NCBI GenBank assembly: GCA_009699245.1
Contig: WLOQ01000005.1
Location: forward strand, 1 to 64,000
Reading direction: 5' to 3'
DNA: 64,000 nucleotides
Source of the DNA: Actinomycetota bacterium
GTDB taxonomy: Bacteria; Actinomycetota; Thermoleophilia; Solirubrobacterales; Solirubrobacteraceae
The notes below the pieces were generated by a model, which was given only the letters and a program-made list of their open reading frames with translations, did not search any database and was not told where the DNA came from. Shown piece after piece: positions 7,707 to 33,986 of this stretch (the first letter of the stretch is position 1; every line of letters begins with the position of its first letter). A program made the position numbers and the translations under genes.

Positions 7707-9788
7707 TCAGGTGATGATCGGAATGATGAGGATCGCGACGATGTTCGCGACCTTGATCATCGGGTTGATCGCCGGGCCGGCCGTGTCCTTGAACGGATCG
7801 CCGACCGTGTCACCGGTCACCGACGCAGCGTGGGCCTCAGAGCCCTTGCCGCCGAACGCGCCGTCCTCGATGAGCTTCTTGGCGTTATCCCAGGCACCGC
7901 CGCCGGCGGTCATCATCACGGCGAAGAAGAAGCCGACGATGATGACGCCCATCAGCAGGCCACCGAGGGCCGTGATGGAGATGAGGCCGACGATCGTCGT
8001 GATGACGATCGGGATCAGCGACGGGATGATCATCTCGCGCTGAGCAGCCTTCGTGACGATGTCCACGCACGCTGCGTAGTCCGGCACGTCGGTGCCCTCC
8101 ATGATGCCGGGCTTCTCGCGGAACTGGCGACGGACCTCCTCGACGACGGCGCCGCCGGCACGGCCGACAGCCTCCATCGAGAGGGCGGCGAACAGCGTCA
8201 CCATCATGCCGCCGACGAGCAGGCCCATGAGGACGGCCGGATCGTCGATGCCGAAGCCACCGACGCCGATCTCACCCTTCGGCAGCTCGGCCTTGAAGCC
8301 GGCGAACAGCACAATCGCTGCAAGCACCGCGGAACCGATCGCGTAGCCCTTCGTGACGGCCTTCGTCGTGTTCCCGACCGCGTCGAGCGGATCGGTCACG
8401 TCGCGGACCTCCTGGGGCATGTCTGCCATCTCGGCGATGCCACCGGCGTTGTCCGTGATCGGACCGAACGCGTCGAGCGCGACGATGAGGCCGGTCAGCG
8501 AGAGCTGACCCATGACCGCGACGCCGATGCCGTAGATGCCCTGCGAGCCGCCACCGGCGAGCTTCCAGGACACGAGGATGCCGAGCACCAGCACGATCGC
8601 CGGGAGCGCCGTAGCCTGCAGGCCCTGCGCGAGTCCGGAGATGATGTTGGTCGCGTGACCGGTCTGCGAGGCCTCAGCGGTCTTGCGCACCGGCCCGAAG
8701 CGGGTCGACGTGTAGTAGTCGGTGATGACGAACAGCAGCGCCGTGACGACGATGCCGACGATCGAGCAGAGGTACAGGTCCGTGACCGACGGGACCGACA
8801 CGTTGCCGGCCGCGCTGGAGAAGCCGAGGTCGCTCATCATCCACTTGGTGATGGGGTAGAACGCGGCGGCGGCGATGATGCCGGAGACCGCGAGGCCCTG
8901 GTAGAGCGCACGCTCGACGTTGCCGACCTTGGTGCGCACCGCGAAGGTGCCGATGATCGACGCGATGATCGCGACGCCACCGAGCACCAGCGGGTAGAGC
9001 GCGACAGCCGTCTGATCGGCGGCGCCGAAGGTCAGGACACCGAGCAGCATGACCGCGACGGCGGTGACCGCGTAGGTCTCGAAGAGGTCGGCTGCCATGC
9101 CAGCACAGTCGCCGACGTTGTCGCCGACGTTGTCCGCGATCACGGCCGGGTTGCGGGGGTCATCCTCAGGGATGCCCGCCTCGACCTTGCCGACGAGGTC
9201 GGCGCCGACGTCAGCGGCCTTCGTGAAGATGCCGCCGCCCAGTCGGGCGAAGACGGAGATCAGCGAGCCACCGAAGCCGAGGCCGATGAGCGCGTCGACG
9301 GCGTCCTTGGGGGACTTGTCGAACGCCCACGTGAGCAGGCCGTAGTAGCCGGCGACGCCGAACAGCGCCAGGCCGACGACGAGCATGCCGGTGATGGCAC
9401 CGCCGCGGAAGGCGACGCTGAGCGCCGGGCTGACGCCACCGCGGGCTGACTCAGCGACGCGCGCATTGGCGCGCACCGAGACGTTCATCCCGATGTAGCC
9501 GGCGGCGCCGGAGAGGATGCCACCGATGAGGAAGCCCGCTGCGACGGAGAAGTCCTGAATGAAGATCAGCGCGACGAAGAGGACGATGCCAACGCCCGCA
9601 ATCACGGTGTACTGGCGGTTGAGGTACGCGCGGGCACCCTGCTGAACCGCGATGGAGATGCGGCGCATCTCGTCGTTGCCGGGCGAGAGCGCCAGCAGCT
9701 GGGTGGTGGTCACGACGCCGTATGCAACGGCGACGAGCGCACAAACCAGGGCGATGAGCACCCCGTGGTCAGTCAGGAAAGCAGTCAA
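7707..9788 (-). CDS. hppA: Membrane-bound proton-pumping pyrophosphatase (H+-PPase), K+-independent type
   Basis: It hydrolyses pyrophosphate and pumps H+ across the cytoplasmic membrane. The protein has about 693 residues and some 16 membrane spans. The substrate-binding signature is present as [20 protein letters not shown]476, in [10 protein letters not shown] (codon 8361-8363), is the residue that marks K+-independent H+-PPases; K+-dependent enzymes have Ala there. I chose TTG at 9788-9786 because AAGGAT precedes it at a good distance and it begins at the first hydrophobic helix (LTAFLTDHG). An upstream in-frame ATG at 9836 would add 16 unlikely residues. A TAGCAT box at 9888-9893 implies a leader of about 90 nt with a UUCG hairpin. 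Confidence 0.93.
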
Positions 9789-15490: not shown

Positions 15491-16339
15491 TCAGAGTTGC
15501 TCGGCGATCCGCGGAGCCTCGCGCCGGAAGACCCACACACCGAGGGCGCAGACGCTCGCGAAGATCGCTCCCGCTGCGACGAGCTGCCAGGCGCCGATCC
15601 CGAGCTCGCCGAGTGTCGGGGCTGACGGGTCGATGATCCAGCGCCGTCCGAGGTGGAAGAGCGGCGTGAGCGGGTTGAGGACGAGGACGTCCCGCAGTCC
15701 TTGCGGCGCCACCTCGAGCGGGTAGAGCACGGGGGTGCCATAGAAGAGCACCGTCGTCAGGACGCCCCAGATGATCGCGAGGTCGCGCAGGCGCGGGTAC
15801 AGCGCCGAGAGCAGCATCGACACCCCGGTCGTGAGCACGAGCAGCAGCGCGGCGAAGACCGGGAAGAGCAGCCAGGTCCACGTCGGCGTGACGCCCCAGG
15901 CGAGAATGAAGATGAGCACGACGACGAGGTTCAGAGCGAGGTTGAACAGGGTCGTGAGGACGACGGAGAGCGGAATCACCGCGCGCGGGAACTGCGTCTT
16001 GCGCACGACCCCCTCCTGCGCGACGACGGAGGTCACCGCGGTGGTGGTCGCCTCCTGGAAGAAGGCGAAGAGGACGATGTTGAAGAGCAGGAGCACCGGG
16101 TAGTCCGGCACGTCCGAGCCGATCCTGAAGACCTGCGTGAAGACGAGGAGGAGCACGCCGAACAGCAGCAGCGGCTTGGCGAGCGCCCAGAGGTAGCCGA
16201 GCGCCGTCCCGAAGTACGTCTTCTTGAAGTCGGTGACCGCGATGATCCAGAGCAGCTCGAGCGCGCGTCGACGGCCACCACCGAAAGGGCTCGGGCCGGG
16301 GACGTCGAGGAGCGGCGGAGATTGCGATTCGGTGCTCAT
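15491..16339 (-). CDS. wzm: ABC-2 type polysaccharide export permease (Wzm/TagG-like)
   Basis: 282 residues with six predicted membrane segments (between about 45 and 270) and the ABC-2 membrane fold. The start of the first helix region FKKTYFGTALGYLWALAKPL is typical of O-polysaccharide and teichoic-acid exporters of the Wzm/TagG/RfbD group. The N-terminal 30 residues are cytoplasmic and proline/glycine-rich. The ATG overlaps the stop of the Wzt-like ATPase gene by 4 nt, confirming a two-gene ABC exporter. It would move lipid-linked glycan across the cytoplasmic membrane. Confidence 0.88.
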   Translation of the reverse strand: MSTESQSPPLLDVPGPSPFGGGRRRALELLWIIAVTDFKKTYFGTALGYLWALAKPLLLFGVLLLVFTQVFRIGSDVPDYPVLLLFNIVLFAFFQEATTTAVTSVVAQEGVVRKTQFPRAVIPLSVVLTTLFNLALNLVVVLIFILAWGVTPTWTWLLFPVFAALLLVLTTGVSMLLSALYPRLRDLAIIWGVLTTVLFYGTPVLYPLEVAPQGLRDVLVLNPLTPLFHLGRRWIIDPSAPTLGELGIGAWQLVAAGAIFASVCALGVWVFRREAPRIAEQL

Positions 16340-30968: not shown

Positions 30969-31868
30969 ATGTCCACTCTCCCCACCACGCTCAACGTCCC
31001 CGCCGACGCCTCGAGCCTGCCGATGACGCTGCCGCGCCTGCTCGAGAAGAAGCGCCTCGGGGAGCCGATCGTCATGGTCACGGCCTACGACCACCCGAGC
31101 GCCCGCGCCGCCGAGCGCGCCGGTGTCGACCTCGTCCTGATGGGGGATTCGGGGGCGATGACCGTCCTCGGCTACGACTCGACCGTCACCGTCGAGCTCG
31201 ACGAGCTGCTCGTCCTCGCCCGTGCGACGCGGCGCGGCCTGACCACCCCGTTCCTCGTCGGCGACCTGCCCTTCGGCTCCTACGAGATCAGCGACGAGCA
31301 GGCCATCACGACCGCGATGCGGTTCGTGAAGGAGGCGGGCTGCGACGCGGTGAAGCTCGAGGGCGGCGGCGAGACCTCGGTCGCCCGCGCCCGCGCCATC
31401 GTCCGGGCCGGCATCCCCGTGATGGGCCACGTCGGCCTCACGCCGCAGACCTCGACCGCGCTCGGCGGCTACAAGGCGCAGGGCCGCACGGCGCAGACGG
31501 GTGTGCGCATCGCCCACGAGGCGCTCGCGCTCCAGGAGGCCGGGTGCTTCTCGATCGTCTTCGAGGCGATTCCCTCTGCGCTCGCGGCCGAGATCATGCC
31601 GTTGATGACGATCCCGGTGATCGGGATCGGCGCCGGCCCCGCCGTCGATGGCCAGGTGCTCGTCTTCCACGACCTGCTCGGCATCCGCGAGGGGCTCGGT
31701 GCGCGGTTCGTCAAGCGCTACGCCCACCTGCTCGACGAGATGGTCGCCGGCGTCGCCGCCTACGCGGATGACGTGCGCGAGCGCCGCTACCCCGGGCCCG
31801 AGCACGGGTACTCTATCGACGAGGCCGAGCTGCGCGAGCTGCGGGCCGCGCTCACCCCGCCGGTCTAG
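30969..31868 (+). CDS. panB: 3-methyl-2-oxobutanoate hydroxymethyltransferase PanB
   Basis: It makes ketopantoate from 2-oxoisovalerate and methylene-tetrahydrofolate, the first committed step to pantothenate. 299 residues with a TIM barrel: PIVMVTAYDHPSARAAERAGVDLVLMGDS near the N terminus, VKLEGGG (about 131-137) and the Glu/His-containing GHVGLTPQT block follow the family. There is a clear Shine-Dalgarno (AGGAG) 8 nt upstream of the ATG, 35 nt after panC. It is the third gene of the pantothenate operon; panD is not in the window. Confidence 0.95.
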   Translation: MSTLPTTLNVPADASSLPMTLPRLLEKKRLGEPIVMVTAYDHPSARAAERAGVDLVLMGDSGAMTVLGYDSTVTVELDELLVLARATRRGLTTPFLVGDLPFGSYEISDEQAITTAMRFVKEAGCDAVKLEGGGETSVARARAIVRAGIPVMGHVGLTPQTSTALGGYKAQGRTAQTGVRIAHEALALQEAGCFSIVFEAIPSALAAEIMPLMTIPVIGIGAGPAVDGQVLVFHDLLGIREGLGARFVKRYAHLLDEMVAGVAAYADDVRERRYPGPEHGYSIDEAELRELRAALTPPV

Positions 31869-31881
31869 GTCGCGTCGCCCC

Positions 31882-31914
31882 GTTCACGGGGTGTTCACAT
31901 CACGTTCACAAGTG
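31882..31914 (+). promoter_or_regulatory. Triple 11-bp PHO box (PhoP site) of the phosphate uptake operon
   Basis: Three contiguous 11-bp units begin with the same hexamer: GTTCACGGGGT (31882-31892), GTTCACATCAC (31893-31903) and GTTCACAAGTG (31904-31914). This is the direct-repeat architecture of actinobacterial PHO boxes bound by phosphorylated PhoP. The third unit ends 16 nt before a TAGGCT -10-like hexamer, so it occupies the -35 position, as expected for an activator site. The genes behind it encode a DUF47 protein and a PiT phosphate transporter. Confidence 0.75.
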
Positions 31915-31930
31915 GGCCACACGGTCGGCG

Positions 31931-31936
31931 TAGGCT
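31931..31936 (+). promoter_or_regulatory. -10-like TAGGCT of the DUF47-PiT operon
   Basis: TAGGCT follows the last PHO-box unit by 16 nt. It predicts a transcript with a leader of about 30 nt and a GGAG ribosome site (31967-31970) just before ATG 31973. Confidence 0.5.
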
Positions 31937-31972
31937 GCGCGCGTCCGTGCAACCGTACCCCCGCCTGGAGCC

Positions 31973-32602
31973 ATGGCCAGCCTCACGAATCTCCTCACGT
32001 CGCGCGATCGGGTCTTCTCCGAGTTCTTCGCGCAGTTCGCCGCGACTACCGTGCGCGCCGCCACGCTGCTCGACAAGATGCTCGAGCACTATCCCGAGCG
32101 TCGTGAGGAGCTGCTCGCGCAGATCATCGAGTGCGAAGGCGAAGGCGACACGATCCTGCACGGCATCCGTGCGCGCCTGAACGCGACCTTCGTCACACCG
32201 ATCGATCGCGAGGACATCCTGGAGCTCGGCTCGGCCTTCGACGACATCATCGACTTCGCCGAAGAGACCGCGGACTATCTCGTCATCTACGGCATCGAGG
32301 CCCCGATGGAGTCGGCCCAGCGCCTCTCCAAGGTCCTGCTCGCAGCCACAAAGGCGCTTGAGAAGGCCGTGCCGTCGGTCCGGGACTTCTCGGACGCATC
32401 TGCCGCGATTTACGAGGTGCACCGTCTGGAGAACGAGGGCGATCGCATCAGTCGCGACGCCATCGCCTCCCTCTTCCACAACGGCATCGACCCGATGGTC
32501 GTGATCCGGTGGAAGGACGTCTACGAGCGTATGGAACAGGCGATTGACGCCTGTGAGCACGCCGCAGACGTCATTGACGAGATCATCATCAAGAACGCCT
32601 GA
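31973..32602 (+). CDS. DUF47/PhoU-like accessory protein of a PiT transporter
   Basis: 209 residues, all helical and acidic, starting MASLTNLLTSRDRVFSEFF. It has the PhoU/DUF47 pattern of two helix bundles with metal-binding E/D motifs, seen in EDILELGSAFDDIIDFAEE (about 82-100) and HRLENEGDRISRDAIASLF. DUF47 genes usually precede pit genes and are thought to regulate them (pitA-associated regulator). Here the stop is 2 bp before the PiT start. The PHO box upstream ties expression to phosphate starvation. Confidence 0.88.
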   Translation: MASLTNLLTSRDRVFSEFFAQFAATTVRAATLLDKMLEHYPERREELLAQIIECEGEGDTILHGIRARLNATFVTPIDREDILELGSAFDDIIDFAEETADYLVIYGIEAPMESAQRLSKVLLAATKALEKAVPSVRDFSDASAAIYEVHRLENEGDRISRDAIASLFHNGIDPMVVIRWKDVYERMEQAIDACEHAADVIDEIIIKNA

Positions 32603-32604
32603 GC

Positions 32605-33735
32605 ATGACCGGCGACGTGATCCTGGTCATCGTCGTCCTGACGGCGCTGGCATTCGACTTCACCAATGGCTTTCACGACACCGCGAACGCGGTCGCCACC
32701 GCCGTCGGGACGCGCGCCATGTCCCCGCGGTTCGCAGTCTCGCTCGCAGCCATTCTGAACTTCGTCGGCGCGTTCATCTCGCTGAAGGTCGCCGCAACGA
32801 TCGGCAAGGGGATCGTCGACTCCGGTGTCGTCACCCCAACCGTGATCTTCGCGGCCCTCATCGGAGCGATCAGCTGGAATCTCATCACGTGGTGGTTCGG
32901 ACTCCCATCGAGTTCCTCGCATGCGCTGATCGGCGGCGTCGTCGGCGCTGTGATCGCCGCGGCGGGCACCTCAGGAGTCGAGTTCTCCGGCCTCGTCGAC
33001 AAGGTGCTCGTCCCCGGGCTCGTCGCGCCGATCCTGGCATTCGTGGTCGCTGGACTCTGCATCCTCGTCGCGTACCTGATCGCGGGCCGGCAGCGCCCTG
33101 GACCGGTGGCCCGCGGGTTTCGCCTCGGGCAGCTTGGGACGTCGAGTCTCTTCGCGCTCGCGCACGGGACAAACGACGCACAGAAGACGATGGGCATCAT
33201 CACCCTCGCCCTCATCGCGAACGGGAACCTGCCATCCGACGGCTTCGACGTTCCGACCTGGGTGATCATCTCGTCGGCCGCCGCAATCGCCCTGGGAACG
33301 TGGTCGGGTGGCTGGCGCATCATCAAGACGATGGGCACGCGCATCATCAAGATGGATCCGCCGCAGGGGTTCGCCGCTCAGGGAGCCGGTGCGGCGGTCC
33401 TCTTCAGCGCGACGTCGCTCGGCTACCCGCTCTCGACCACGCATGTGATCTCCGGAGCCGTGATGGGTTCGGGTGCCGCGAAGAGCGTCTCAGCCGTGCG
33501 CTGGGGCATCGCGGGGAACATCCTCATCGCGTGGATCCTCACCCTGCCGGCCGCAGCGCTCATCGGCGCGGCGGCCTACGGCTTCTGTGCGATCTTCGGC
33601 GACTCGGTCGCCGGCCCGCTGCTCGTGACGGTCTGCGCCATCGGCTTCGGCCTCCGCGTCGCTGGACACCGGTCGCGCAGGATCCGCGATGCCGCTGCAG
33701 CCGCAGCCGCTGAGCGCGAGGGGGTCATCGCATGA
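32605..33735 (+). CDS. PiT-family inorganic phosphate transporter
   Basis: 376 residues with about ten membrane segments. The two PiT signature repeats are FTNGFHDTANAVATAVGTRAM (about 15-35) and FALAHGTNDAQKTMGI (near 183-198). This is the inverted-duplication pattern with the conserved GxxDxxN/GTNDAQ motifs. It takes up metal-phosphate with H+ in model bacteria. It follows the DUF47 gene by 2 bp and overlaps a small membrane-protein gene by ATGA. The operon lies behind a triple PHO box, which is notable because pit genes are often regarded as constitutive. Confidence 0.92.
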   Translation: MTGDVILVIVVLTALAFDFTNGFHDTANAVATAVGTRAMSPRFAVSLAAILNFVGAFISLKVAATIGKGIVDSGVVTPTVIFAALIGAISWNLITWWFGLPSSSSHALIGGVVGAVIAAAGTSGVEFSGLVDKVLVPGLVAPILAFVVAGLCILVAYLIAGRQRPGPVARGFRLGQLGTSSLFALAHGTNDAQKTMGIITLALIANGNLPSDGFDVPTWVIISSAAAIALGTWSGGWRIIKTMGTRIIKMDPPQGFAAQGAGAAVLFSATSLGYPLSTTHVISGAVMGSGAAKSVSAVRWGIAGNILIAWILTLPAAALIGAAAYGFCAIFGDSVAGPLLVTVCAIGFGLRVAGHRSRRIRDAAAAAAAEREGVIA

Positions 33736-33986
33736 TGCGCCCGCTGCTCGGCTCGACGTCGGCACTCGGCCCCGACCTGCTGCAGCTCATCTGGGAGGGC
33801 ACGGCCGTCGCGGTCGCCGTCACACTCGCCTTTTCGCTCGCCGTCGTCGGCATCACGCGCGCCGGCGAGGCCAAGGAGAGCGGCAGAACCATCGCGCTCG
33901 CCGGCTGGTCGCTGCTCGGCGTCCTGGGGCTCCTCGGCTTCGTCGCAGCCGCAGTCCTCGCCGTGCACGTCGTCACAAATAAGTGA
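33732..33986 (+). CDS. Small two-span membrane protein in the phosphate operon
   Basis: 84 residues with two hydrophobic segments (about 20-42 and 56-80) separated by a charged cytoplasmic loop AGEAKESGRT. It overlaps the PiT stop by 4 nt (ATGA), so it is the third member of the phosphate operon. No family recognised. Its position suggests an accessory subunit of the transporter, but it could be unrelated. Confidence 0.65.
   Translation: MMRPLLGSTSALGPDLLQLIWEGTAVAVAVTLAFSLAVVGITRAGEAKESGRTIALAGWSLLGVLGLLGFVAAAVLAVHVVTNK

What the first reader, a model, noticed from the sequence alone, without database searches (positions are those of the whole stretch)
31882..31914. Three perfectly phased 11-bp PHO-box repeats controlling a DUF47-PiT operon
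GTTCACGGGGT, GTTCACATCAC and GTTCACAAGTG follow each other without a gap and end 16 nt before a -10-like TAGGCT. This is the direct-repeat organisation of actinobacterial PhoP sites, placed exactly where an activator would cover the -35. Pit transporters are often described as low-affinity and constitutive, so strong Pho control of a PiT operon in this lineage is worth testing. It also defines a species-specific PHO-box sequence for genome scans.
Basis: partly seen in the sequence, partly recalled or inferred. Interest (0 to 1): 0.6.

Follow-up and report, generated by a model that had tools for sequence, protein, structure and literature searches.

The report
PHO box before a phosphate-transporter operon
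Just before a phosphate-uptake operon in an actinobacterium lies a genuine three-unit binding site for a phosphate-starvation regulator, of a kind already known in Streptomyces, and related genomes suggest that the same site may act as an off-switch in one genus.

Summary
In detail: GTTCAC-N5 three times at 31882-31914, a degraded fourth unit (GGCCAC) at 31915, and TAGGCT at 31931-31936. In the host genome (1.95 Mb) the three-unit pattern (up to 3 mismatches) falls at only three loci: this operon, pstS, and the gap between a second DUF47 gene and a stand-alone PhoB-type DNA-binding domain beside pstSCAB-phoU. The reversed-pattern control gives none. In the order, 45 of 201 genomes carry the pattern (up to 1 mismatch) with zero control hits; 26 of 29 inspected sites adjoin Pho genes. 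A box precedes 17 of 30 orthologous DUF47-PiT operons. It is very probably a real PHO box. PHO-box control of pit is already known (Streptomyces pitH2, Microlunatus pit, Sinorhizobium orfA-pit), so this is a new member of a known kind. Added here: (i) the DUF47-linked PiT carries the box and the genome's other PiT does not, the reverse of Streptomyces; (ii) in one genus the box lies between -10 and start codon, a repressor-like position; (iii) the gene most often behind such boxes in this order is a receiver-less PhoB-type regulator, so "PhoP binds it" is unproven.

The parts
31882..31914 (+). PHO box: three contiguous 11-bp direct repeat units (GTTCACggggt, GTTCACatcac, GTTCACaagtg)
   Evidence: sequence; genome-wide restriction to phosphate loci; recurrence upstream of orthologous operons
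31915..31925 (+). degraded fourth repeat unit, GGCCACacggt, in register
   Evidence: sequence; a degraded fourth unit (often GTAAC) follows many related boxes
31931..31936 (+). -10-like TAGGCT, no TTGACA-type -35 upstream
   Evidence: the same hexamer or TANNNT follows the box in 11 of 17 boxed orthologues
31973..32602 (+). DUF47 (PhoU-like, Pit accessory) gene
   Evidence: PF01865, E 6.4e-25
32605..33735 (+). PiT phosphate transporter gene
   Evidence: PF01384, E 8e-93
33732..33986 (+). 84-aa hydrophobic ORF overlapping the PiT stop (ATGA), probable third operon member
   Evidence: tblastn homologues behind PiT in many relatives; no Pfam family above cut-off
30969..31868 (+). panB, the upstream co-oriented neighbour; 104 nt between its stop and the DUF47 start
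   Evidence: PF02548, E 8e-100; order conserved in relatives

Best explanation
The three repeats (plus one degraded unit) are a PHO box: tandem sites for an OmpR/PhoB-family winged-helix regulator, one subunit per 11-bp unit. Bound regulator would cover the missing -35 and recruit RNA polymerase to the -10 TAGGCT, so that the DUF47-PiT-small-ORF operon is switched on at low phosphate together with pstSCAB-phoU and a second DUF47 gene. Shown from sequence: the site, its restriction to phosphate loci in the genome, its recurrence before orthologous operons, and the promoter geometry. Inferred: binding, response to phosphate, and activation as the sign (about 0.75). The binder is open between three candidates: a RegX3-like regulator with an adjacent kinase (C1:175016), an atypical response regulator encoded next to phoU, and a stand-alone DNA-binding domain encoded at the pst locus.
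For: Genome-wide triplet hits only at this operon, pstS and the DUF47-2/wHTH gap, control zero (genes). Order: 45 of 201 genomes, control zero in all; 26 of 29 inspected loci beside Pho genes. Orthologous promoters: 17 of 30 boxed, 14 of 30 at p<=0.01 against shuffles; all three genomes of the own genus that have this DUF47 gene have a box. TANNNT follows the box in 11 of 17. No TTGACA -35. Same motif footprinted upstream of pit in Microlunatus (PMC6754071) and 11-nt units at pitH2 in Streptomyces (PMC7866108).
Against: No binding or expression data. 13 of the 30 orthologous operons have no recognisable box. In genus g10 the box lies downstream of a -10-like element. No box was seen at the RegX3-like regulator's locus, so autoregulation of an orthodox phoP is not seen. 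-10 assignments rest on a short match.
Confidence: 0.8

Rival explanations
1. The box is a repressor site: the regulator shuts the DUF47-PiT operon down in phosphate starvation and leaves uptake to Pst.
For: S. meliloti orfA-pit is repressed on Pi starvation and has its PHO box just upstream of the start codon (PMC3131613). Five of seven g10 orthologues have the box between a TACACT -10 and the start codon.
Against: In the window the box lies upstream of the -10, over the -35, with no -35 hexamer of its own; most boxed orthologues share that layout.
Confidence: 0.17
2. The repeats are read by the stand-alone PhoB-type domain or by the atypical phoU-linked regulator rather than by a phosphorylated PhoP/RegX3-type regulator.
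For: The stand-alone domain lies directly behind the box in 19 of 29 triplet loci of the order and shares its recognition helix with the phoU-linked regulator. A PhoB effector domain without receiver binds DNA constitutively (reviewed in PMC4415409).
Against: A RegX3-like regulator with adjacent kinase is present. Sequence similarity of recognition helices does not prove shared sites. Several regulators may share the box.
Confidence: 0.45
3. The repeats are the site of another OmpR-family regulator with 11-bp spacing (MtrA or GlnR type), not part of a phosphate response.
For: Eleven-bp direct repeats are common to this family, and other such regulators use similar spacing (own knowledge). The fourth unit is often GTAAC.
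Against: The hexamer is that of PhoP (GTTCACC in S. coelicolor, PMC4415409), and its targets in the genome and order are Pho genes.
Confidence: 0.05
4. The repeats are a chance or structural feature of the panB-DUF47 gap with no regulatory role.
For: 31879-31892 is also a small inverted repeat (CCCCGT-TC-ACGGGG, visible), and panB is co-oriented 104 nt upstream.
Against: Near-zero chance expectation, restriction to Pho loci, and recurrence across genera. No terminator or Rfam match.
Confidence: 0.02

Closest known systems
Streptomyces coelicolor pitH2 PHO box (PhoR-PhoP)
   Same: Tandem 11-nt GTTCAC-type units (four core plus two weak) in the promoter of a Pit transporter, needed for expression at low phosphate (PMC7866108)
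   Different: pitH2 is described without an accessory gene, and pap-pitH1 is not PhoP-controlled; here the DUF47-linked PiT carries the box and the other PiT does not
Microlunatus phosphovorus pit promoters bound by PolR
   Same: Identical consensus GTTCACnnnnnGTTCaC, footprinted upstream of pit, also at pstS (PMC6754071)
   Different: PolR is a DevR-like regulator proposed to answer oxygen; no such regulator was tested for here
Sinorhizobium meliloti orfA-pit PHO box
   Same: PHO box at a pit operon with an accessory gene in front
   Different: Repressed on Pi starvation, box just upstream of the start codon (PMC3131613); the window's box is upstream of the -10, although genus g10 resembles S. 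meliloti
Escherichia coli PhoB pho box
   Same: Direct repeat units of 11 bp bound head to tail (PMC4415409)
   Different: Unit sequence CTGTCAT; orthodox PhoR-PhoB pair, whereas the pst locus here has an atypical regulator and a receiver-less domain with no HisKA kinase beside them

Membership tests
PHO box (actinobacterial PhoP/RegX3 type) | at least two direct repeat units with 11-bp period and GTTCAC-like core | tested here: met
   three perfect cores in register plus a degraded fourth
PHO box (actinobacterial PhoP/RegX3 type) | the same motif at pst and other phosphate genes of the genome | tested here: met
   pstS and DUF47-2/wHTH at the pst locus; control zero
PHO box (actinobacterial PhoP/RegX3 type) | conserved upstream of orthologous genes | tested here: met
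   17 of 30 orthologous operons; absent in 13
PHO box (actinobacterial PhoP/RegX3 type) | bound by the phosphate response regulator | not testable with these tools
   needs EMSA or footprinting; three candidate regulators
PHO box (actinobacterial PhoP/RegX3 type) | phosphate-dependent expression of the gene | not testable with these tools
   no expression data held
PhoR-PhoP / SenX3-RegX3 two-component system | orthologous response regulator with adjacent histidine kinase in the genome | tested here: inconclusive
   C1:175016 regulator is closest to RegX3 in the PDB (8e-63) with a HisKA kinase beside it; orthology not tested by a tree
DUF47-PiT (pap-pit) operon | DUF47 gene directly upstream of PiT | tested here: met
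   DUF47 stop at 32602, PiT start at 32605; PF01865 and PF01384

The most novel reading that the evidence does not exclude
In Solirubrobacterales the PHO boxes, this one included, are read partly by a receiver-less PhoB-type DNA-binding domain of about 115-120 aa that is itself made from a PHO-box promoter at the pst locus, giving phosphorylation-independent amplification or damping of the Pho response; and the box at the DUF47-PiT operon occupies an activating position in most genera but a repressing one in another.
Probability: 0.4. Interest if true: 0.62.

Novelty: new member of a known kind. Interest (0 to 1): 0.42.

Why it matters
It gives a sequence-level outline of a Pho regulon in Thermoleophilia, a deep actinobacterial class for which the open-access search turned up no Pho study. 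It shows that a transporter often called constitutive can be placed under Pho control, and perhaps be inverted, by where one site lies. It also points to a stand-alone DNA-binding domain as a regular member of the regulon.

Tried and rejected
A variable-gap search for GTTCAC pairs gave a long, truncated list with many coding-type matches and is not used as evidence. The alignment of three same-genus promoters used the wrong strand for two loci and is discarded. The first Pfam scan of the third ORF (protein 3) was in the wrong frame and was redone. One-mismatch doublets at C12:65284, C12:165871 and C14:138179 were not followed up and are treated as probable chance. Three of 29 triplet loci in the order (L044, L055, L057) have no Pho gene at hand. 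Terminator and known-RNA readings of the region found nothing relevant. MtrA/GlnR-type sites were considered and set aside because of the hexamer and the target set. The MIX shows that most small same-genus genomes lack this DUF47 gene, so conservation had to be judged at family level.

Full report
What is there. At 31882, 31893 and 31904 the + strand reads GTTCACggggt GTTCACatcac GTTCACaagtg without a gap, followed in the same register by GGCCACacggt and then TAGGCT at 31931. Downstream lie DUF47 (31973-32602), PiT (32605-33735) and an 84-aa hydrophobic ORF (33732-33986); upstream is panB, ending at 31868.

Chance. In 300 Markov shuffles of the window no triplet appeared, and exact doublets averaged 0.003 per 64 kb. 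In the 1.95-Mb genome (99.4% complete) the triplet with up to 3 mismatches falls at three loci and the reversed pattern at none. Besides this operon, one is about 100 nt upstream of the pstS start (first unit at L019:8549, ATG at 8449). The other is a near-perfect triplet between a second DUF47 gene and a divergent stand-alone winged-helix gene. These belong to one cluster, wHTH-pstS-pstC-pstA-pstB-phoU-response regulator. A weaker doublet in reverse orientation lies in the phoU-regulator gap, and another follows a phosphoesterase gene in the same region.

Across the order. With up to 1 mismatch the triplet occurs in 45 of 201 genomes, and the reversed-pattern control is zero in every one. Of 29 loci inspected, 26 adjoin Pho genes. 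In the unit, GTTCAC is strongly conserved, position 7 is A>G>C and position 11 is often C.

The orthologous operon. DUF47 homologues at 1e-60 or better were found in 77 of 146 genomes of the family. Among the 30 best, 17 have at least a two-unit box just upstream, and 14 of the 30 score at p no more than 0.01 against shuffles. In the own genus only three of 17 genomes have this close DUF47 gene, and all three have a box. In 11 of the 17 a TANNNT follows the box, usually 7-10 or 15-17 nt after the start of the last unit. In nine of these it ends 7-9 nt before the start codon, as in leaderless transcripts. In the window the -35 position falls inside the third repeat and there is no TTGACA. This is the layout of an activator-dependent promoter.

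A second layout. In genus g10 five of seven orthologous operons have TACACT immediately upstream of the box, so that the box lies between the -10 and the start codon; the other two keep a TAGACT -10 but have no box. A protein bound there should block initiation. S. meliloti orfA-pit, repressed on Pi starvation, has its PHO box just upstream of the start codon (PMC3131613). I infer, but cannot show, that the sign of control differs between genera; the -10 assignments rest on short matches.

Who binds. The genome has nine PhoB-type DNA-binding domains. The regulator at C1:175016 is closest to RegX3, the mycobacterial phosphate regulator, among PDB chains (8e-63), and a HisKA kinase lies beside it. 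The regulator next to phoU keeps the phosphate-accepting Asp, the Thr and the Lys, but one residue of the acidic pair is Thr or Arg (read by eye from the sequences), and no HisKA kinase lies near it. The stand-alone domain has a recognition helix much like that regulator's (GDRTVDVYVRKLRVKLE against GDRSVDVFVRKLRQKLE). In 19 of 29 triplet loci it is the gene directly behind the box; in 13 of those an in-frame stop between box and gene rules out a receiver domain, and in eight DUF47-2 is divergent. A PhoB effector domain without its receiver binds DNA constitutively (reviewed in PMC4415409), so this domain is a plausible PHO-box reader.

Against what is known. Pho-linked Pit genes are known: S. 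coelicolor pitH2 (four core plus two weak units; pap-pitH1 not controlled; PMC7866108), Microlunatus pit (GTTCACnnnnnGTTCaC; PMC6754071) and S. meliloti orfA-pit. The present case is a new member. Its twist is that the DUF47-linked PiT carries the box, while the genome's other PiT (C12:217828), with no DUF47 gene directly before it, has none in the 3.9 kb around it. No paper on Pho regulation in Thermoleophilia turned up in the open-access library; that is not a complete search of the literature.

Verdict. The box is real, very probably functional, and ordinary in kind. The interesting parts are the possible difference in sign between genera and the receiver-less regulator behind PHO boxes.

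Noticed in passing
L019:8512-8874 (-) = G000:C12:132511-132873, box at C12:132934-132961: A stand-alone PhoB-type winged-helix gene (about 120 aa, no receiver domain) sits behind a near-perfect three-unit PHO box beside pstS; the same arrangement recurs in 19 of 29 triplet loci of the order, in eight with a divergent second DUF47 gene.
   Followed up: partly
L092, L093, L097, L101, L104 (genus g10), upstream of DUF47: The PHO box lies between a TACACT -10 and the start codon, a repressor-like position, opposite to the layout in the window and in most other genera.
   Followed up: partly
window 33732-33986 (+): An 84-aa hydrophobic ORF overlapping the PiT stop codon is conserved behind PiT in many relatives and has no Pfam family above cut-off: a possible third component of the DUF47-PiT operon.
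   Followed up: partly
L019:2998-3873 (-) = G000:C12:126997-127872: The response regulator next to phoU has an atypical acidic pair (Asp-Thr here, Asp-Arg in relatives) while keeping the phospho-acceptor Asp; no HisKA kinase lies beside it.
   Followed up: partly
L019:11830-17418: A second Pst-like set (substrate-binding protein, permease, ATPase) and a PF04185 phosphoesterase lie a few kb from the pst operon, with weak PHO-box-like sequences near 15752 and 17427.
   Followed up: partly
window 30969-33735: The order panB-DUF47-PiT is conserved across many genera of the family although panB has no evident link to phosphate.
   Followed up: no
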